A stretch of DNA of 64,000 nucleotides from Gordonia araii NBRC 100433 (lineage in GTDB: Bacteria > Actinomycetota > Actinomycetes > Mycobacteriales > Mycobacteriaceae). The notes beneath the pieces are model-generated. The model was not told the origin of the DNA and searched no databases. It saw only the letters and a list, made by a program, of their open reading frames with translations. Numbering within the stretch: position 1 is the stretch's first letter; every line of letters begins with the position of its first letter. Shown piece after piece: positions 3,191 to 11,483 of the stretch. The stretch is from assembly GCF_000241265.1 (NCBI RefSeq), contig NZ_BAEE01000082.1:1-64000 (forward strand), given 5' to 3'. Both the position numbers and the translations under genes were made by a program.

Positions 3191-4654
3191 TCACGCTCCG
3201 TAAGGGGAGATGCTGCTGCGGTGCTCGTCGATGTGGAGCGGCACGCCCAGCGGCGGGAAGGCCCGCTGCGGGCATCTCTCCCGCTCACACACACGGCACC
3301 CCGAGCCGATCAGCGTGACCTTGGCTTGCGGACCGATCTCCAGGCCGTCGGAGTAGATGACGCGCCCGGCGTGCCGCAGCTCGCAGCCCAGGCCGATCGC
3401 GAAGGTCTTGCCCGGTTGCCCGAACCGCGCCGCGCGGCGCTCCACCGTGCGCGCCACCCAGAAGTAGTCCCGTCCGTCGGGCATCTGGGCGACCTGCGTG
3501 AGGATCTTGCCCGGCGAGCCGAAGGTCTCGTACACGTTCCACAGCGGGCAGGTGCCCCCGCTGGCGGAGAAGTGAAAACCGGTGGCGGACTGTCGTTTCG
3601 ACATGTTGCCCGCCCGGTCGACGCGGACAAACGACCACGGGATGCCGCGCAGGTTGGGGCGCTGCAGCGTCGAGAGGCGATGGCAGATCGTCTCGTAGGA
3701 GAGCGAGTAGAACGCGGAGAGGCGCTCGATGTCGTAGCGGAAATCCTCGGCGGCGCCGTGGAACTGCTCGTAGGGCATCGCGGCCGCCGCGGCGAAGTAG
3801 TTCGCCAGCCCGGACATCGCCAGCGCACGGGCGTCCGCCGAGGTGAAGTTGGCCTCGTCGACGAGCTGCGTCATCAGATCGCCGTATTCCAGGTAGGCCA
3901 GCTCCGAGGCCAGCTTGAACGTCCGCTGTCCGGGGCCGAGTGCCCCGGAGATCTCCAGCCTGCGCGACTGCGGGTCGAATCGGTGGAGCAGGTCGTCGCC
4001 GAGATCGACGCGGCGAACGATCTGGACGCCGTGCACGGTTTCGAGCCGGTGGGCGATCTCCGCGCGCACGTCCCCGGAATGCATGCGCATGCGGGTGACC
4101 ATCTCCTCGGCCGCGACGTCGAGGTCGTGCAGATAGTTGTGGTGGGCGGAGAAGAAGTCGCGGACCTCCTCGTGGGGGGCGCTGATGGAACCGCGCATGC
4201 TGCGGTCCCCGCGCTCGTCGGTGGCCGCGGCGAGCTGGTCGGTCGCGACGCGGTACCGCCGGTGCAGGTTGACGACGGCCTCGGCGATCGCCGGGTGATT
4301 GGCCACCATGTCGGCGAGCTGCTGCGGGTCGGTGGCCGAGTCGGGTGCCTCGACATGCTCCTCGATCAGCGCCTCGCGCAGCTCGGCGACGAGGCGGATG
4401 TTGTCCTGCGGGTCGAAGAATTCGGCGTCGACGCCGAACACCTCGGAGATGCGGGCCAGCACCGGTGCCGTGAGCGGGCGCGTGTCGTGCTCGATCTGGT
4501 TCAGGTACGACGGCGAGATGCCCAGTTCGCCGGCGAGACGGACCTGGGACAGCCCGCGCTCCGAACGGAGCTGCCGCAGCCGAGACCCGACGTAGTGCGC
4601 CGTGCCGCGACGTGTGTCCGCGTCGGGTTTGGAGCGCGCCGATGTGCTGGTCAT
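3191..4654 (-). CDS. ramB: RamB-type transcriptional regulator of acetate/glyoxylate genes (ScfR family)
   Basis: The product (487 aa) starts with an XRE helix-turn-helix (about residues 22-80; motif LSQVRLAGELGISPSYLNQIE). The middle carries an IrrE/ImmA-like region (FKLASELAYLEYGD), and the C-terminal DUF2083-type domain has cysteines (GTCPLWNVYE and GSGCRVCERERCPQ). This is the short-chain fatty acyl-CoA regulator family. RamB of Corynebacterium and Mycobacterium binds AAACTTTGCAAA-like sites and controls isocitrate lyase and acetate genes. Here aceA lies 1.2 kb away on the other strand with such a site upstream (5646-5657). In M. tuberculosis the homologue also flanks icl1. The gene is divergent from the lipoprotein gene with only 24 bp between starts. 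Confidence 0.88.
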   Translation of the reverse strand: MTSTSARSKPDADTRRGTAHYVGSRLRQLRSERGLSQVRLAGELGISPSYLNQIEHDTRPLTAPVLARISEVFGVDAEFFDPQDNIRLVAELREALIEEHVEAPDSATDPQQLADMVANHPAIAEAVVNLHRRYRVATDQLAAATDERGDRSMRGSISAPHEEVRDFFSAHHNYLHDLDVAAEEMVTRMRMHSGDVRAEIAHRLETVHGVQIVRRVDLGDDLLHRFDPQSRRLEISGALGPGQRTFKLASELAYLEYGDLMTQLVDEANFTSADARALAMSGLANYFAAAAAMPYEQFHGAAEDFRYDIERLSAFYSLSYETICHRLSTLQRPNLRGIPWSFVRVDRAGNMSKRQSATGFHFSASGGTCPLWNVYETFGSPGKILTQVAQMPDGRDYFWVARTVERRAARFGQPGKTFAIGLGCELRHAGRVIYSDGLEIGPQAKVTLIGSGCRVCERERCPQRAFPPLGVPLHIDEHRSSISPYGA

Positions 4655-4665
4655 GGCGTCCCCGG

Positions 4666-4671
4666 TACGGT
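4666..4671 (+). promoter_or_regulatory. Leaderless-type -10 box of the lipoprotein gene
   Basis: TACGGT ends 7 nt before the ATG at 4679. RNA would start at the start codon, which fits the absence of a ribosome binding site in the 24-bp divergent gap. Confidence 0.5.
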
Positions 4672-4678
4672 GTCGCGC

Positions 4679-5461
4679 ATGGGTTCTCCAAGAACGTGGT
4701 CGGCGGTCGTCGCGCTGCTGGCGGCCGTCGGGCTGGTGGGCTGTTCCTCCACGGTAGACCTGGCCCCACCGGAACCGGGGTCCATGCTGTTGGCCCCGTC
4801 GGCCCTGCCGTCGGGATTCAGCCCGGTCACCACGACGGTGGACGAGTTGGTGAGGGCGAATGCCGGACCGTTGGATGCGGTCGCCCGGATGAGGTTCGCC
4901 CCCCCTGATTGCCGGCCGACCGCCGACGCCGAACTCAACAACCGCATGTCGGACGAGAACGCCGCCGTGCTGGCCGCGCGCAGTCTGGATGCGTCGCTGA
5001 CGAACATCGTCGTCGCGGGAACCCGCGATATCGACGCCGACGTGCGGGAGCGAACCGGCAACTGTGCCACGACGCGCACGACGATCACCGAGGGAACGCG
5101 CACCGGTGCGGTCATCACCGCGGAACACCGCAAGCTGACTCCGCCGAAGCTCACCGGCGAGCGCGCCGGCCGGCTGGGGTTGCTGGGTCGGCTGGAGGTG
5201 ACCCAGATGTTCGTGTTTCGCACCGATACGACGACGACGATGCCCGACGGCGCGACATCGCGCTCGGTGTCCTTCGCCGGGTACGCGGCGGCGCACACCC
5301 CGGGCCCGGACGACGGCAAGAATCGGTTCACCGTCGCGGTCACCGTCGCCGGAGCCGCGACGCCGTTCGCCAAGCCGTTCCCCGAGGTGTCCGAGCCGGT
5401 CACCGACAAGGAATTCGTCGAGTTGTTCGGCCGGGCGCTGTCGGCGGCCGGGCGGCTGTAA
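4679..5461 (+). CDS. Putative lipoprotein of unknown function
   Basis: The product is 260 aa. A short positively charged start and hydrophobic helix end in the lipobox LVGC (Cys22), followed by SSTVDLAPPEPGS. The protein should therefore be lipid-anchored outside the cytoplasmic membrane. The mature part has a PPDCRP motif and a second cysteine (TGNCATTRTT), possibly paired. It looks like a sensor-type or DUF5642-like mycobacterial lipoprotein, but I do not recognise the family with certainty. It is divergent from ramB and lies upstream of aceA in the same direction. With a 349-bp gap before aceA, co-transcription is unlikely. Confidence 0.72.
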   Translation: MGSPRTWSAVVALLAAVGLVGCSSTVDLAPPEPGSMLLAPSALPSGFSPVTTTVDELVRANAGPLDAVARMRFAPPDCRPTADAELNNRMSDENAAVLAARSLDASLTNIVVAGTRDIDADVRERTGNCATTRTTITEGTRTGAVITAEHRKLTPPKLTGERAGRLGLLGRLEVTQMFVFRTDTTTTMPDGATSRSVSFAGYAAAHTPGPDDGKNRFTVAVTVAGAATPFAKPFPEVSEPVTDKEFVELFGRALSAAGRL

Positions 5462-5639
5462 CCGGACCGGATCGCCGCGGAGCCGCGCTGTGACTCCGCA
5501 CACAAGGCGCGCGCGGCCGGGCGGCCACGGCGGGCGCGAGACGCCGAACCGGGCCCGAGCGCGGCTCGCCGTCGCCGCCGCGAAATCCCAGTACGCGCGT
5601 ACTTTTTTCTGCGGCGCACGGCGACTTTCACATCCCCAG

Positions 5640-5690
5640 TTTCGCAAACTTTGCAAAAATGCGCGTCGAGATGGTCTGAATTTGCAGGTC
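5640..5690. promoter_or_regulatory. RamB-type operator region upstream of aceA
   Basis: AAACTTTGCAAA at 5646-5657 matches the motif described for RamB in Corynebacterium glutamicum. Directly left, TTTCGCAAAC at 5640-5649 is a reversed half-site that overlaps it. Another TTTGCAGG-like half lies at 5681-5688. The rest of the 349-bp gap (5462-5810) holds no gene and no clear terminator. The AGAAGAAAG sequence at 5791-5799 serves as ribosome binding site for aceA. The match to the motif is visible; binding is inferred from the regulator gene next door. Confidence 0.68.
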
Positions 5691-5810
5691 GCAACGATTG
5701 GACCTGCGGGTTTGTACTGTGGCACCCTTGCATCAGGCACCGCCTAGAGGCAGCGGATTCTTCGCAATCCGCAGACGCCTTTTCGTAAGTAGAAGAAAGC
5801 GAATGCACTA

Positions 5811-7103
5811 ATGAGCAACGTCGGAAAGCCACGTACCGCCGCCGAGATCCAGCAGGACTGGGACACCAACCCGCGCTGGAAGGGCATCACCCGCGACTAC
5901 ACCGCCGAGCAGGTCGCCGAGCTGCAGGGCACCGTCCTCGAGGACCACACCCTCGCGCGTCGCGGCGCCGAGATCCTGTGGGAAGGCGTGACCAAGGGCG
6001 ACGACAGCTACATCAACGCGCTGGGCGCCCTGACCGGCAACATGGCCGTGCAGCAGGTTCGCGCCGGCCTCAAGGCCATCTACCTCTCGGGCTGGCAGGT
6101 CGCCGGTGACGCGAACCTGTCGGGCCACACCTACCCCGACCAGTCGCTGTACCCGGCCAACTCGGTGCCGGCCGTCGTGCGCCGCATCAACAACGCGCTG
6201 CTGCGCGCCGACGAGATCGCCGCGGTCGAGGGCGACAAGGCCGTCGACAACTGGCTCGTCCCCATCGTCGCCGACGGTGAGGCCGGCTTCGGTGGCGCGC
6301 TCAACGTCTACGAGCTGCAGAAGGCCATGATCGCCGCCGGCGCCGCTGGCACCCACTGGGAGGACCAGCTCGCGTCGGAGAAGAAGTGCGGCCACCTCGG
6401 TGGCAAGGTGCTGATCCCGACCCAGCAGCACATCCGCACCCTGACCTCGGCCCGTCTGGCCGCCGACGTCGCCAACACCTCGACCGTCGTGATCGCCCGT
6501 ACCGACGCCGAGGCCGCGACGCTGCTGACCTCCGACGTCGACGAGCGCGACCGCCCGTTCCTGGACGGCACCCGTACCTCGGAGGGCTTCTACGGCATCA
6601 AGAACGGCATCGAGCCCTGCATCGCCCGCGCCAAGGCCTACGCGCCCTACGCGGACCTGATCTGGATGGAGACCGGCAAGCCGGACCTCGAGGTCGCCAA
6701 GCAGTTCGCCGAGGCCGTCAAGAGCGAGTTCCCCGACCAGCTGCTGGCCTACAACTGCAGCCCGTCCTTCAACTGGAAGCAGCACCTGGACGACGACACC
6801 ATCGCCAAGTTCCAGAACGAGCTGGGCGCCATGGGCTTCAAGTTCCAGTTCATCACGCTGGCCGGCTTCCACGCCCTCAACTACTCGATGTTCGACCTGG
6901 CTCACGGCTACGCCCGCGAGCAGATGAAGGCCTACGTCGACCTGCAGGAGCGCGAGTTCGCCGCCGAGGAGCGCGGTTACACCGCCACCAAGCACCAGCG
7001 TGAGGTCGGTGCCGGCTACTTCGATCAGATCGCCACCACCGTCGACCCGAACACGTCGACCGCGGCGCTGAAGGGCTCGACCGAAGAGGGCCAGTTCCAC
7101 TAG
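5811..7103 (+). CDS. aceA: Isocitrate lyase
   Basis: The product (430 aa, the usual size of the short actinobacterial form such as Icl1 of M. tuberculosis) cleaves isocitrate to glyoxylate and succinate, the first step of the glyoxylate shunt. It allows growth on acetate and fatty acids. The catalytic loop KKCGHLGGK is present, as are the substrate and metal segments [21 protein letters not shown] and NCSPSFNW. The protein is cytosolic and normally a homotetramer. A RamB-type site lies upstream, a strong hairpin follows, and the next gene (fadB2) serves fatty-acid metabolism. The start ATG follows an AGAAGAAAG ribosome binding site. An ATG 8 nt earlier is out of frame and closes after two codons. 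Confidence 0.97.
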
Positions 7104-7251: not shown

Positions 7252-7311
7252 TTTTCACCACCCGTAGAACCCACAATCCGTAGCCGTTAACCAGCTTTGA
7301 GGAGCCGTCCC

Positions 7312-8184
7312 ATGGCAAGCCAGAAGATCACGCGAGTCGGTGTCATCGGTGCCGGCCAGATGGGCGCCGGTATTGCCGAGGTGTGTGCGCGCGCTTCGGT
7401 CGACGTTCTCGTGTACGAGTCCACCCGCGAATTGGCCGCCGCCGGTCGCGCCCGCGTCATGCGGTCGCTGGATCGCGGCGTCTCCAGCGGAAAGCTGACC
7501 GAGCGGGAACGCGAGCAGGCGGCCTGGCGGCTGCGCTTCACCTCCGATCTCGGCGACTTCGCCGACCGGCAACTCGTCGTCGAAGCGGTCGTCGAGGACG
7601 AGGCCGTCAAGACTGCGATCTTCGCCGAACTGGACAAGGTCGTCACCGACCCCAACGCCGTGCTCGCGTCGAACACCTCGTCGATCCCGATCATGAAACT
7701 GGGCATGGCCACCCAGAACGCGGCGCGCGTCGTCGGCATGCACTTCTTCAACCCGGTTCCGGTGCTTCCGCTCGTCGAACTGGTGACGACGCTGATGACC
7801 AGCCCGGAGGTCTCCGAGCGCGCCGAGTCCTTCGCCCGCGACGTGCTGGGCAAGCAGGTCGTCCGCTCCGCAGACCGCTCCGGGTTCGTGGTCAACGCCC
7901 TGCTGGTGCCGTATCTGCTCTCCGCGATCCGCATGGTCGAGTCCGGCTTCGCCACCGTCGAGGACATCGACAAGGCCATGGTTCTGGGTTGTGCGCACCC
8001 GATGGGGCCGCTCAAGCTGACCGACCTCGTCGGCCTCGACACCGTGAAGGCGATCGCCGACAAGATGTACGAGGAGTTCAAGGAACCCCTGTACTCGCCG
8101 CCGCCGCTGCTGTTGCGCATGGTCGAGGCCGGGCGCATCGGCAAGAAGGCCGGTCACGGGTTCTACCAATACGACGCGAAGTAG
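7312..8184 (+). CDS. fadB2: 3-hydroxybutyryl-CoA dehydrogenase
   Basis: The product (290 aa) has an N-terminal Rossmann fold with the NAD motif VIGAGQMGAGIAEV. The catalytic His region MHFFNPVPVLPLVELV and the C-terminal dimerisation domain (DRSGFVVNALLVPYLLSAIRMVESG, GPLKLTDLVGLDTV) are typical of the short single-function hydroxyacyl-CoA dehydrogenases. The reaction is reversible oxidation of 3-hydroxybutyryl-CoA to acetoacetyl-CoA. The position next to isocitrate lyase is the same as fadB2 next to icl1 in M. tuberculosis. The ATG at 7312 follows GAGGAG at 7299-7304. A TTG five codons upstream overlaps that site and is less likely. The metE-like gene follows after 12 nt, so the two are probably co-transcribed. 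Confidence 0.93.
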   Translation: MASQKITRVGVIGAGQMGAGIAEVCARASVDVLVYESTRELAAAGRARVMRSLDRGVSSGKLTEREREQAAWRLRFTSDLGDFADRQLVVEAVVEDEAVKTAIFAELDKVVTDPNAVLASNTSSIPIMKLGMATQNAARVVGMHFFNPVPVLPLVELVTTLMTSPEVSERAESFARDVLGKQVVRSADRSGFVVNALLVPYLLSAIRMVESGFATVEDIDKAMVLGCAHPMGPLKLTDLVGLDTVKAIADKMYEEFKEPLYSPPPLLLRMVEAGRIGKKAGHGFYQYDAK

Positions 8185-8196
8185 CGGGCCTGCGCC

Positions 8197-10500
8197 ATGA
8201 CTAGCCCGGACGGCATCGAATACGGTTCGTCGATCCTGGGGTACCCCCGAATCGGCGCCCGCCGCGAGCTCAAGTTCGCCCTCGAGGGGTATTGGCGGGG
8301 GAGCATCGGCCGCGACGAATTGCTGGCCACCGGCCGGGAACTCGCCGACAGCGTCTGGCTCGAACTCGCCGCGACCGGGCTCGAGCAGGTGCCGGGCAAC
8401 ACGTTCTCGTTCTACGACCATGTTCTCGACACCGCGGTGCTGTTCGGCGCGACGCCTCCGCGTTTCGCCGACCTCGCCGACGAGCTGGAGCCGATCGACT
8501 ACTACTTCGCGATGGCGCGAGGCAAGCCGGGCCATCCGCCGCTGGAGCTGATCAAGTACTTCAACACCAACTATTTCTATCGGCAGCCCGAGATCGATCC
8601 GGCAACGGCGTTCTCGCTGCACGCGGAGACCCTGCTCGACGAGCATCGTCGCGCCAAGGCCGAAGGCATCGAGCTGCGCCCCGTCGTCGTCGGTCCCGTC
8701 TCGTTCCTGCTCCTCTCGAAAGCGGCACCCGGCTCGCCGGAGGGTTTCGCGCCGATCGACCGGCTCGACGATCTGCTGCCGGTCTACGCCGAGCTGATGG
8801 AGAAGCTCGCCAAGCAGGGCTGCAAGTGCATTCAGTTCGACGAGCCGTGCTTCACCAGCGACCGCACCGACGCCGACCTCGCCGCGCTGCGTCGTGCCTA
8901 CACGGCGCTGAGCGGCGTGCCGACCGCGTCACGCACCCGGATCCTCGTCACCGGACCGTATGGCGATCTCGGTGAGGCGCTGCCGATCCTGGCCTCGACG
9001 AACGTCGAAGCGATCGGGGTCGATCTGGTGAGCGAGCCGATGACCGCCGCCGAGCTGGCCGCGGTGCCCGGGCTGAAGCGCAAGCGCCTCTATGCCGGTG
9101 TGATCGACGGCCGCAACGTGTGGAAGGCGGCGAAGGGAGGCAAGCTCGACTTCCTGCTGGAGATCAAGGAGCAGATTCCCGACCTGGTCGTCTCGACGTC
9201 GTGTTCGCTCATGCACGTTCCGGTCGACGTCCTCATCGAACCGGACCTGCCGGGCGATGTCGCCGACCGGTTGTCGTTCGCCAAGCAGAAGGTCGCCGAG
9301 GTGGTCGCCCTGGCGAAGGCGATCACGCACGGCGCACCCGAACACTGGTACACACGTCCGGCGACCGTGCACTTCAAACTCAAGCACGACGTGCGGCAGC
9401 GGGTCGCCAACATCCGCCCGGATCAGCGGCAGCGCTTGCCGTACGACCAGCGGAAGCCGCTGCAGGACAAGGCACTGGGTCTGCCTCCGGTGCCGACGAC
9501 GACGCTCGGGTCGTTCCCGCAGACCGGTGAAGTGCGCCAGGCCCGCTACTACTACGGGCAGGGGCGGCTGACGTGGGAGGAGTACGCCCAGCGACTGCGC
9601 GACGAGATCAAGCGCGTGATCGAGCTGCAGGAGGACATCGGGCTCGATGTGCTGGTGCACGGCGAGGCCGAGCGCAACGACATGGTGCAGTACTTCGCCG
9701 AGCTGATGGAGGGTTATGTCGCTACCCACCAGGGGTGGGTGCAGGTCTACGGATCGCGTTGCGTGCGGCCGCCGATCATCTACGGCGACATCAAGCGCAA
9801 GCATCCGATGACCATCGAATGGACGTCGTACGCGCAGTCGTTGACCGACAAGCCGGTCAAGGGCATTCTGACCGGTCCGGTCACGATGCTGGCGCGGTCG
9901 TTCGTGCGTCAGGACCAGCCGATGTACGAGACCGCCGAGCAACTGGCGCTCGCGGTGCGCGACGAGATCGCCGACCTGGAGAAGGCCGGCATCAAGATCA
10001 TCCAGGTCGACGAACCGTCGATCCGTGAGCTGTTGCCGTTGCGGGAGCGCGGTCGAGACGGTTACCTCGACTGGGCCGTCAACGCGTTCCGGCTCGCCGT
10101 CGGCGGTGCGAAGCCGGAAACGCAGATCCACACGCATCTCGGGTACTCGTCGATCGCCCGCGTCGTCGAAGCGTTCGAGGCGATGGACGCCGACGTCGTC
10201 TCTATCGTCGCGACCCGCAACATCGAGTGGGTCTTCACCCAGCTCGCGAAGGGGACGGCCCTGTCGCACGGCGTCGGGCCGGGGGTCTACGAGAGCCGCA
10301 GCGCGCTGATCCCGGAGATCGACGAGATCGACGAGCGGATCCAGCGGGCGACCAGGGCGATCGATCCGGAGCGACTGTGGGTCAACCCCGACGGCGGTCT
10401 GAAGACGCGCCACTATTGGCAGCTCGAGCCGTCGTTGCGCAACATGGTCGCCGCGGCGCGGCGGGAGCGTCGCCGGGTCGAGTCGGGCGACGACGACTGA
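8197..10500 (+). CDS. MetE-like protein lacking three of the four catalytic zinc ligands
   Basis: The product (767 aa) aligns over its full length with cobalamin-independent methionine synthase (MetE). It has the N-terminal LGYPRIGARRELKFALEGYW and the C-terminal LGSFPQTGEVRQAR, HGEAERNDMVQYFAELM and QVDEPSIRELLPL segments that hold homocysteine. The zinc site is destroyed. The usual HTHMCY is HTHLGY (His647 kept, Gly649 instead of Cys). The ligand Glu of the IETSR motif is Val671 (IVATR). NPDCGLKTR is NPDGGLKTR (Gly733 instead of Cys). Zinc activates the homocysteine thiol in MetE, so normal methionine synthase activity is not expected. The frame is intact and well conserved elsewhere, which argues for a retained but altered role. 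It sits 12 nt behind fadB2, with no riboswitch in the gap. Confidence 0.9.
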   Translation: MTSPDGIEYGSSILGYPRIGARRELKFALEGYWRGSIGRDELLATGRELADSVWLELAATGLEQVPGNTFSFYDHVLDTAVLFGATPPRFADLADELEPIDYYFAMARGKPGHPPLELIKYFNTNYFYRQPEIDPATAFSLHAETLLDEHRRAKAEGIELRPVVVGPVSFLLLSKAAPGSPEGFAPIDRLDDLLPVYAELMEKLAKQGCKCIQFDEPCFTSDRTDADLAALRRAYTALSGVPTASRTRILVTGPYGDLGEALPILASTNVEAIGVDLVSEPMTAAELAAVPGLKRKRLYAGVIDGRNVWKAAKGGKLDFLLEIKEQIPDLVVSTSCSLMHVPVDVLIEPDLPGDVADRLSFAKQKVAEVVALAKAITHGAPEHWYTRPATVHFKLKHDVRQRVANIRPDQRQRLPYDQRKPLQDKALGLPPVPTTTLGSFPQTGEVRQARYYYGQGRLTWEEYAQRLRDEIKRVIELQEDIGLDVLVHGEAERNDMVQYFAELMEGYVATHQGWVQVYGSRCVRPPIIYGDIKRKHPMTIEWTSYAQSLTDKPVKGILTGPVTMLARSFVRQDQPMYETAEQLALAVRDEIADLEKAGIKIIQVDEPSIRELLPLRERGRDGYLDWAVNAFRLAVGGAKPETQIHTHLGYSSIARVVEAFEAMDADVVSIVATRNIEWVFTQLAKGTALSHGVGPGVYESRSALIPEIDEIDERIQRATRAIDPERLWVNPDGGLKTRHYWQLEPSLRNMVAAARRERRRVESGDDD

Positions 10501-10515
10501 CCTCTCGCAGTAGTC

Positions 10516-10640
10516 GCCGAGTGGGCACCTCACCCCCGCCGAGTGGGCACCTGACCTCCGCCGAGTGGGCACCTGACCTCCGCCGACTGGGCACCTCACC
10601 TCCGTCGACTGGACCCTCACCCCCGTCGAGTGGGGAGTTA
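10516..10640. repeat. Tandem 22-bp repeat array (locus A)
   Basis: Four units of exactly 22 bp start at 10516, 10538, 10560 and 10582 (GCCGAGTGGGCACCT then CACCCCC, GACCTCC or CACCTCC). A 21-bp unit starts at 10604 and a degenerate one at 10625. The units are the reverse complement of the family seen at 11359, 23803 and 57196. The array begins 16 nt after the metE-like stop codon. Confidence 0.9.
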
Positions 10641-10650
10641 CTGGGCGGAT

Positions 10651-10757
10651 AAGACCGGCTTGCGATGGTCTCGATACACCCGACTCGGCTGGCGCCTCGT
10701 CGGGCACTCGACCACCATTCAACGCCGAGTGGGCACCTCACCTGCATCGAGTGGGCA
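10651..10757. repeat. Inverted copy of the 65-bp core repeat plus two 22-bp units
   Basis: 10651-10720 is a diverged reverse complement of the core element found three times at 23720-24048 (shared blocks such as TGCGATGGTCTCGATAC and GGGCACTCGACCACC). It is followed by 22-bp-type units starting at 10724 and 10746. No coding potential is supported in 10501-10824. Confidence 0.85.
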
Positions 10758-10824
10758 GCGAGTCCCCGGGTGTACGGATGAAAACCGGTTGCGAATCGTG
10801 GGCGACGGTCTGAATCTGGATCGC

Positions 10825-11331
10825 GTGGATGTCACCTTCGTCAAGCGCCGAAACGGATACGACGTGCGGATCAGCCGCGCGGCGGGTCCGGAGCTTGCGC
10901 CGCGCGGAGGACCGGGCGGCCGACCACCGGTTCCGCATGACGCGGCGCATCTGATCGTCGAGACCGAGGCGGGCCTGCGGGGCGGGGTCTTCGGTCGGCT
11001 GGCCGACGCCAACGGTCTTGACGGATTGTTCTGGCCGGTCGATCCCGTGGAGCGGCGCAAGGCCTCTCGGCGGAATAGGAAGCCGACAGCGGCGCAGTCG
11101 GCCGATATGGCGCGGTCGGAGTATCTGGCCTCGATGACGGCGGCGCTGTGGGAGGTCGAGCGCGGGCATCGGAAGCCCGATCCTGCGTGGCCTGGACCTC
11201 GCCCCGACGCCGAGATCCCACCCGAACTGCGTGAGCGCATCTTCGCGCGATACGACGACTTCGCTTCGCGCTGGGCCGCACTGCCCGAGGGCGGCGCGTT
11301 GACGCTGACGTGGATACATCCCACACGCTGA
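10825..11331 (+). CDS. Conserved actinobacterial protein of unknown function
   Basis: The product (168 aa from the GTG at 10825) is soluble, with no signal peptide or membrane helix. It starts MDVTFVKRRNGYDVRISRAA and contains PHDAAHLIVETEAGLRGGVFGRLA, followed by a charged helical region and a C-terminal LTLTWIHPTR. I recall similar short proteins with the same PHD-AH-LVE-GVFG pattern in many actinobacteria, none with a known function. GTG at 10798 and TTG at 10789 are alternative starts. The reading frame also stays open back through the repeat array, but that part is repeat DNA. The gene sits as an island between repeat loci A and B. Confidence 0.6.
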   Translation: MDVTFVKRRNGYDVRISRAAGPELAPRGGPGGRPPVPHDAAHLIVETEAGLRGGVFGRLADANGLDGLFWPVDPVERRKASRRNRKPTAAQSADMARSEYLASMTAALWEVERGHRKPDPAWPGPRPDAEIPPELRERIFARYDDFASRWAALPEGGALTLTWIHPTR

Positions 11332-11358
11332 CGCCATCCGCGCTGGCACGGGTTGGAT

Positions 11359-11480
11359 GCCCAGTCGGCGCCGGTGAGGTGCCCAGTCGGCGGGGTTGAG
11401 GTGCCCAGTCGGCGGGGGTGAGGTGCCCACTCGGCGGGGTTGAGGTGCCCACTCGGCAGGGGTGGGGTGCCCACTCGGCG
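11359..11480. repeat. Tandem 22-bp repeat array (locus B)
   Basis: Six units start at 11359, 11381, 11403, 11425, 11447 and 11469 (the last only 12 nt). Each begins GCCCAGTCGGCG or GCCCACTCGGC and ends GTGAGGT, TGAGGT or GTGGGGT. The array lies between two convergent genes and ends 3 nt before the PPK2 stop codon. Confidence 0.93.
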
Positions 11481-11483
11481 GAT

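What the first reader, a model, noticed from the sequence alone, without database searches (positions are those of the whole stretch)
8197..10500. Intact MetE-family protein that has lost three of four zinc ligands
The sequence shows HTHLGY where MetE has HTHMCY, IVATR where it has IETSR, and NPDGGLKTR where it has NPDCGLKTR. Cys, Glu and Cys are therefore replaced by Gly649, Val671 and Gly733, while His647 stays. In E. coli MetE these four residues bind the zinc that activates homocysteine. The rest, including the homocysteine-binding LGSFPQT, HGEAERND and QVDEPS segments, is well kept over 767 residues. A decayed pseudogene would show frameshifts or scattered damage; here only the metal site is gone. 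That suggests a new function, such as a ligand sensor, another methyl acceptor or a metal-free transfer. Its coupling to fadB2 and isocitrate lyase hints at a link to fatty-acid or propionate metabolism.
Basis: partly seen in the sequence, partly recalled or inferred. Interest (0 to 1): 0.85.

Follow-up and report, generated by a model that had tools for sequence, protein, structure and literature searches.

The report
Zinc-less MetE paralogue beside isocitrate lyase
Many soil actinobacteria carry a second, well-preserved copy of the methionine-making enzyme MetE in which the zinc site and other reaction residues have been replaced, next to genes for living on fats and acetate, so the label methionine synthase is probably wrong and its real job is open.

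Summary
Window 8197-10500 (+) encodes a full-length 767-aa MetE-fold protein with G649, V671 and G733 at three of four zinc-ligand positions; H647 stays. Residues that hold homocysteine's amino and carboxyl groups and the folate glutamate tail are kept.

It belongs to a paralogue clade ('MetE2'). All 120 listed homologues lack the three ligands. Of 80 named loci, 38 are zinc-less and 42 have all four ligands plus His and Trp. The tree fits one origin; dN/dS is 0.07-0.11 to the nearest relatives; order is icl-fadB2-metE2 wherever contigs allow. It hits in 182 of 401 family genomes; of 394 class genomes, only 4, all own-family. The window's genome also has a normal metE under a cobalamin riboswitch, and metH; MetE2 lacks the riboswitch.

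Most likely it is not a methionine synthase but a reused, metal-free pocket for an amino acid and folylpolyglutamate, tied to acetate/fatty-acid growth. Activity is unknown. Zinc-less core homologues were known (PMC7857596); nine searches found no report of this form.

The parts
8197..10500 (+). metE2: full-length zinc-less MetE paralogue, 767 aa
9895..9897 (+). R567, position of the pterin-stacking Trp (T. maritima Trp539)
   Evidence: alignment; Trp role from passages of PMC539065
10135..10137 (+). H647, the one zinc ligand kept
10141..10143 (+). G649, replaces zinc-ligand Cys (G/T/A/S/P/N in the clade)
10207..10209 (+). V671, replaces zinc-ligand Glu (V in 38, I in 1 of 39)
10297..10299 (+). 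R701, replaces candidate acid His (T. maritima His672)
   Evidence: role from passages of PMC539065
10393..10395 (+). G733, replaces zinc-ligand Cys (G in 39 of 39; Phe in 1 of the 120)
7297..8184 (+). fadB2-type 3-hydroxybutyryl-CoA dehydrogenase, 12 bp upstream of metE2
5811..7103 (+). icl, isocitrate lyase, first gene of the conserved three-gene order

Best explanation
MetE2 is a neofunctionalised paralogue of cobalamin-independent methionine synthase. Shown by sequence: the two-barrel fold, the residues that grip an alpha-amino acid's amino and carboxyl groups (E490, D605, S439, M496) and those that grip the folate polyglutamate tail (R23, K26, R521, R524) are kept, while three thiol-activating zinc ligands, the candidate acid His and the pterin-stacking Trp were replaced, the last two mostly by Arg. 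Inferred: the pocket binds a non-thiol, possibly anionic, amino acid or related acid, with R701 and R567 near it, and does not make methionine from homocysteine by the zinc-thiolate route. Inferred from gene order: it acts together with isocitrate lyase and FadB2 during growth on acetate, fatty acids or propionate, either as a folate-linked one-carbon transferase with a non-thiol partner (slightly favoured) or as a ligand-binding pseudoenzyme (first rival, a sub-case of this statement).
For: Zinc ligands lost as a set in a clade that the tree puts on one side of one branch, with dN/dS 0.066-0.106 to the three nearest relatives and 0.052-0.063 in the six closest pairs. The 8 side-chain positions for homocysteine (E490, D605, S439, M496) and the glutamate tail (R23, K26, R521, R524) are invariant in 39 of 39. 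metH in 19 of 19 clade-bearing genomes tested and a second MetE match in 14 of 19, so MetE2 is not needed for methionine there. Cobalamin riboswitch upstream of 8 of 8 canonical metE loci chosen for scanning, in 0 of 9 MetE2 loci chosen and none in the window. fadB2 is the gene immediately upstream in 35 of 38 rows, the other three starting at a contig end. Predicted fold matches MetE (mean pLDDT 86; 4ztx TM 0.91).
Against: No substrate, activity or expression datum. Retention of ligand residues is not clearly more than expected: 9 of 10 kept at the chosen cut-off against 69% of all canonical-invariant positions, P 0.13. Pterin-contact E611 is Thr in two Hoyosella loci and K120 varies, so folate binding is uncertain. 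Spacing fadB2-metE2 reaches 565 bp in some Nocardia, so co-transcription there is unproven. The gene is absent at the cut-off used from 52 of 59 Gordonia genomes, so its function is dispensable or replaceable. Which residues the new arginines contact is not modelled. One curated MetE model passes its cut-off.
Confidence: 0.6

Rival explanations
1. Ligand-binding pseudoenzyme (a sub-case of the best statement; the odds are not additive): MetE2 has lost catalysis and senses or buffers an amino acid or folate, for example methionine or folylpolyglutamate, perhaps acting through a partner protein.
For: Three thiol-activation ligands, the acid candidate and the stacking Trp gone, with the amino-acid clamp invariant. 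Precedent: zinc-less MesB-like proteins of Chloroflexales are taken to have another function in PMC7857596 (passages).
Against: New residues are fixed, not just lost: R701, R567, V671, W678, E699, S700, Q130, R152, Y299, which suggests a remodelled site; Pfam shows no further domain.
Confidence: 0.28
2. Zinc-independent methionine synthase: MetE2 still methylates homocysteine without metal, R701 stabilising the thiolate, as a backup when zinc is short.
For: Homocysteine and folate-tail residues kept; NCBI model NF003556 passes its cut-off (953 against 541 bits). One selenite proteome of a Rhodococcus reports metE induced (passages of PMC13414329), copy not specified.
Against: Needs loss of zinc, acid candidate and Trp to be tolerated; no Zur-like box found in the window with one recalled palindrome (a weak test); no cobalamin riboswitch; metH present in 19 of 19 genomes tested; its conserved neighbours are icl and fadB2.
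Confidence: 0.1
3. Decaying duplicate or sequencing artefact.
For: Absent at the cut-off used from 52 of 59 Gordonia genomes, so it can be lost.
Against: Open 767-aa frame, shared substitutions over six named genera, dN/dS 0.07-0.11 to nearest relatives, 33.6% of positions invariant over 39 sequences.
Confidence: 0.01

Closest known systems
MetE, cobalamin-independent methionine synthase (PF08267 + PF01717; PDB 1U1H, 1XDJ, 4ZTX)
   Same: Same two-barrel fold and length; 48% identity to the genome's own MetE; homocysteine clamp and glutamate-tail residues kept.
   Different: Three zinc ligands, candidate acid His and pterin-stacking Trp replaced; no cobalamin riboswitch in the loci scanned; sits behind icl-fadB2.
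Zinc-less MesB-like proteins of Chloroflexales (Price et al. 2021, PMC7857596, passages read)
   Same: MetE catalytic-domain homologues whose zinc ligands are not conserved (FSHG, YCDQ, YREQ), proposed to have another function.
   Different: Those are relatives of a core (C-domain only) enzyme in another phylum with different substitutions; MetE2 is full length with one nearly fixed set and a conserved gene neighbourhood.
Core methionine synthases MesA-D
   Same: Homologous catalytic barrel.
   Different: They lack the N-terminal barrel that MetE2 has, and keep a zinc site (with some substitutions, such as His for one Cys in most MesC; passages) that MetE2 lost.
Uroporphyrinogen decarboxylase
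   Same: Distant barrel match (4zr8, E 4e-7); not a metalloenzyme, as stated in passages of PMC539065.
   Different: Sequence identity 13%; one barrel; no reason to expect the same substrate.

Membership tests
MetE (cobalamin-independent methionine synthase) | N- and C-terminal barrels, about 750-770 aa | tested here: met
   Pfam PF08267 and PF01717 full length; AF2 model TM 0.91 to 4ztx
MetE (cobalamin-independent methionine synthase) | Zinc ligands His-Cys-Glu-Cys | tested here: not met
   H-G-V-G here; 0 of 38 clade loci and 42 of 42 other loci have HCEC
MetE (cobalamin-independent methionine synthase) | Homocysteine contacts (T. maritima Glu462, Asp577, Ser411, Met468) | tested here: met
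   E490, D605, S439, M496 invariant in 39 of 39; the backbone contact Ile409 is Leu437
MetE (cobalamin-independent methionine synthase) | Folate glutamate-tail Arg15, Lys18, Arg493, Arg496 | tested here: met
   R23, K26, R521, R524 invariant in 39 of 39
MetE (cobalamin-independent methionine synthase) | Pterin-stacking Trp539 and candidate acid His672 | tested here: not met
   R567 in 37 of 39 (F in 2) and R701 in 37 of 39 (H in 2)
MetE (cobalamin-independent methionine synthase) | Curated model cut-offs | tested here: inconclusive
   NF003556 953 bits, cut-off 541, passes; TIGR01371 901 bits, cut-off 930, fails
MetE (cobalamin-independent methionine synthase) | Methyl transfer from CH3-H4PteGlu3 to homocysteine | not testable with these tools
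   needs purified protein
Core methionine synthases MesA-D | Absence of the N-terminal barrel | tested here: not met
   PF08267 matched at residues 11-326
Zur-regulated zinc-free paralogues | Zur box upstream | tested here: inconclusive
   one recalled palindrome, 3 mismatches allowed, 0 matches in the window; the motif was not calibrated for this genus

The most novel reading that the evidence does not exclude
MetE2 is a metal-free, folate-dependent enzyme with a reaction not yet described, moving a one-carbon unit to or from a non-thiol amino acid or acid, that links the folate pool to the glyoxylate/methylcitrate arm of carbon metabolism in mycolate actinobacteria.
Probability: 0.3. Interest if true: 0.82.

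Novelty: new variant of a known kind. Interest (0 to 1): 0.6.

Why it matters
In the sample searched, 182 of 401 family genomes carry a protein of the kind that public annotation calls methionine synthase (source names) although residues that make that reaction possible are gone. Metabolic models, B12-dependence predictions and gene-essentiality readings that count it as metE would be wrong, above all in genomes where it is the only MetE match (5 of 19; all five have metH). It also gives a clean natural experiment: a well-studied zinc enzyme that kept its substrate clamps and lost its metal, with 21 positions fixed for different residues to test one by one.

Tried and rejected
Pseudogene or sequencing error: rejected by the shared substitutions, open frame and dN/dS.

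Zinc-sparing (Zur) paralogue: one recalled Zur-like palindrome found nothing; weak test, kept inside a low-probability rival.

B12-backup role: cobalamin riboswitch in 8 of 8 canonical loci chosen (own plus 7 of the 42), in 0 of 9 MetE2 loci chosen (of 38), none in the window.

One-carbon hint from the alcohol dehydrogenase that follows metE2 in 6 of 38 rows: for L033 it is far from the mycothiol-dependent formaldehyde dehydrogenase model (83 against a cut-off of 513 bits); nearest is aldehyde reductase Ahr, also below cut-off (310 against 470).

Ligand-site retention test: not significant at the cut-off chosen (P 0.13). Joint loss of zinc, Trp and His sites against background gave P 0.013, but those sites were picked after seeing them, so it is descriptive.

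Papers: nine searches listed no description of this clade or of an icl-fadB2-metE operon that I recognised. I read passages only of PMC539065, PMC7857596, PMC13414329 and PMC10699116 (the last puts FadB2 among lipid-inclusion proteins, and does not mention MetE in the passages seen); the rest I saw as search listings. The library lacks most subscription journals.

Full report
What was checked. The frame at 8197-10500 (+) gives 767 residues without a stop. HTHLGY begins at residue 645, IVATR at 670 and NPDGG at 730, so three of the four zinc-ligand positions read G649, V671 and G733, while H647 stays. Pfam finds both MetE domains at full length. NCBI's NF003556 model passes its cut-off (953 against 541 bits) but TIGR01371 does not (901 against 930). 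The ten best sequence matches among solved structures are full-length MetEs, the eleventh a core enzyme.

Using T. maritima positions named in passages of PMC539065 and the alignment, I placed the substrate contacts. Kept: the homocysteine clamp (Glu462, Asp577, Ser411, Met468 are E490, D605, S439, M496), the glutamate-tail residues (Arg15, Lys18, Arg493, Arg496 are R23, K26, R521, R524), and pterin contact Glu583 (E611). Lost besides the zinc ligands: Trp539, which stacks on the pterin (R567), and His672, a candidate proton donor (R701). So the reaction centre as a whole changed, not the metal site alone.

How general it is. The protein search scored 7999 candidates and listed 120, the window's own among them. 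All 120 lack Cys, Glu and Cys at the three positions, have V671, and have R701; 733 is Gly in all but one, which is Phe (two of the 120 are fragments under 480 aa). Of these 80 loci, 38 are zinc-less (Williamsia, Rhodococcus, Nocardia, Hoyosella, Smaragdicoccus, Dietzia) and 42 are HCEC with His and Trp; none is mixed at the ligand positions. Two Hoyosella loci keep His at 701 and have Phe at 567 and Thr at 611, so replacement may have been stepwise. Phe at 567 is also seen in three unnamed-genome loci that have R701 (L014, L017, L020). Across 39 zinc-less and 42 canonical sequences, 21 positions are fixed (90% or more) for different residues.

Distribution. With a cut-off of 1e-262, 182 of 401 family genomes (24 of 31 genera) hit. 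The cut-off rests on the best canonical match seen (6e-253, L021, read as HCEC); I did not read the zinc sites of the genomes one by one. In the class, 4 of 394 genomes hit at 1e-258, all in the window's own family, one of them the window's own genome. A divergent zinc-less form elsewhere would not have been seen. In the window's genus (Gordonia, inferred from named homologues), 7 of 59 genomes have it, the window's own included.

Origin and selection. A quick maximum-likelihood tree of 42 chosen rows puts the 17 zinc-less rows on one side of one branch, SH-aLRT 100 (no bootstrap, no outgroup beyond Actinomycetota, and treekit warned of long branches meeting, Dietzia against the canonical rows). 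dN/dS between the window and its three nearest relatives is 0.083, 0.066 and 0.106; over 636 pairs with dS 0.1-1.2 the median is 0.179 and the range 0.031-0.508 (dS is near saturation in many of these). In the same three pairs fadB2 gives 0.015-0.032 and the part of icl held gives 0.079-0.220. So metE2 evolves faster than fadB2 but far from neutrally.

Genome setting. The window's genome has a second, normal MetE (48% identity, HCEC, His, Trp) under a cobalamin riboswitch and a metH. Of 19 clade-bearing genomes, 14 have a second match at 1e-100 (48-52% identity where listed; their zinc sites were read only for the own genome, and two candidates per genome were scored); 19 of 19 have metH. The riboswitch lies just upstream of all 8 canonical loci that I chose to scan, and in none of 9 zinc-less loci chosen, nor in the window. 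fadB2 is the gene immediately upstream in 35 of 38 rows (37 loci and the window), the other three beginning at a contig end; all three genes were called in 35 of 39, the four others cut by contig ends, and where called they stand in the order icl, fadB2, metE2 on one strand. None of 42 canonical loci shows fadB2 at over 50% identity within the fetched flanks; one, L070, has an icl about 1.8 kb downstream on the other strand. Spacing fadB2-metE2 is 12 bp in the window, 4 bp in Dietzia, and up to 565 bp in Nocardia. The icl-metE2 stretch also matches a Nocardia farcinica record over 90% of its length at 80% identity. In seven genomes without metE2 whose region I took (of ten searched), icl and fadB2 still stand together. 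Of four next genes scanned, two in Gordonia gave an apolipoprotein-type match below its cut-off, one in Gordonia nothing, and one in a g2 genome a mycolic-acid methyltransferase family. So icl-fadB2 looks older than the arrival of metE2 (inference). Upstream in the window lies a regulator with PF09856, the RamB type by recall.

Structure. AlphaFold2 with a 40-row alignment gives mean pLDDT 86, pTM 0.81; the first 29 PDB matches are MetE structures, TM 0.84-0.91. One of them, 4l6o, is C. albicans MetE with glutamine, which shows only that this pocket type can hold an amino acid without a thiol. The tool returns no coordinates, so I did not model which residues the new arginines touch.

Mechanism. 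Shown: loss of the thiol-activating ligands, retention of the amino-acid clamp and folate tail residues, purifying selection, conserved gene order. Inferred: loss of homocysteine methylation, binding of a non-thiol amino acid or acid, folate binding, and a role in acetate/fatty-acid growth. Test against my own reading: among 253 positions nearly fixed in canonical MetE, 69% are kept in the clade; 9 of 10 contact positions are kept at the same cut-off, P 0.13, so retention of the clamp is consistent with, but does not prove, ligand binding. I give about 0.6 to 'not a methionine synthase, ligand pocket reused', with transferase slightly ahead of pseudoenzyme.

Known or new. Zinc-less relatives of the core enzyme MesB exist in Chloroflexales and were proposed to have another function (PMC7857596, passages). 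I found no description of a full-length zinc-less MetE clade or of the icl-fadB2-metE order in nine searches of the open-access library. Hence 'new variant of a known kind'.

Noticed in passing
window 10515-10634 and 11350-11481: Arrays of a 22-bp repeat (core GGTGAGGTGCCCANTCGGC) in opposite orientation, enclosing most of ORF 10630-11331, which has no Pfam match. The core occurs 256 times in the genome (135 + 121, up to 1 mismatch; reversed control 0). In eight stretches picked for showing inverted pairs, the window's included, the arrays face each other about 180-770 bp apart, and the listed similarities between stretches fall in the arrays or their margins. Function unknown.
   Followed up: partly
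L033, L034, L040, L049, L050, L054, just downstream of metE2: A zinc-type alcohol/aldehyde dehydrogenase follows metE2 on the same strand in 6 of 38 rows; in the three scanned (L033, L049, L054) the nearest NCBIfam model is aldehyde reductase Ahr, below its cut-off.
   Followed up: partly
window 3191-5740 (-): Short-chain fatty acyl-CoA regulator (PF09856, HTH, M78 peptidase-like; RamB type by recall), divergent from icl; the called ORF start is probably too far upstream.
   Followed up: no
L124 and L125, gene after fadB2: In two Gordonia genomes without metE2 the gene after fadB2 has an apolipoprotein-type match below Pfam's cut-off, perhaps a lipid-droplet protein.
   Followed up: no
L053, L059 (Hoyosella): Intermediate state: zinc ligands lost, but His at 701, Phe at 567 and Thr at 611; useful for ordering the changes.
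   Followed up: no
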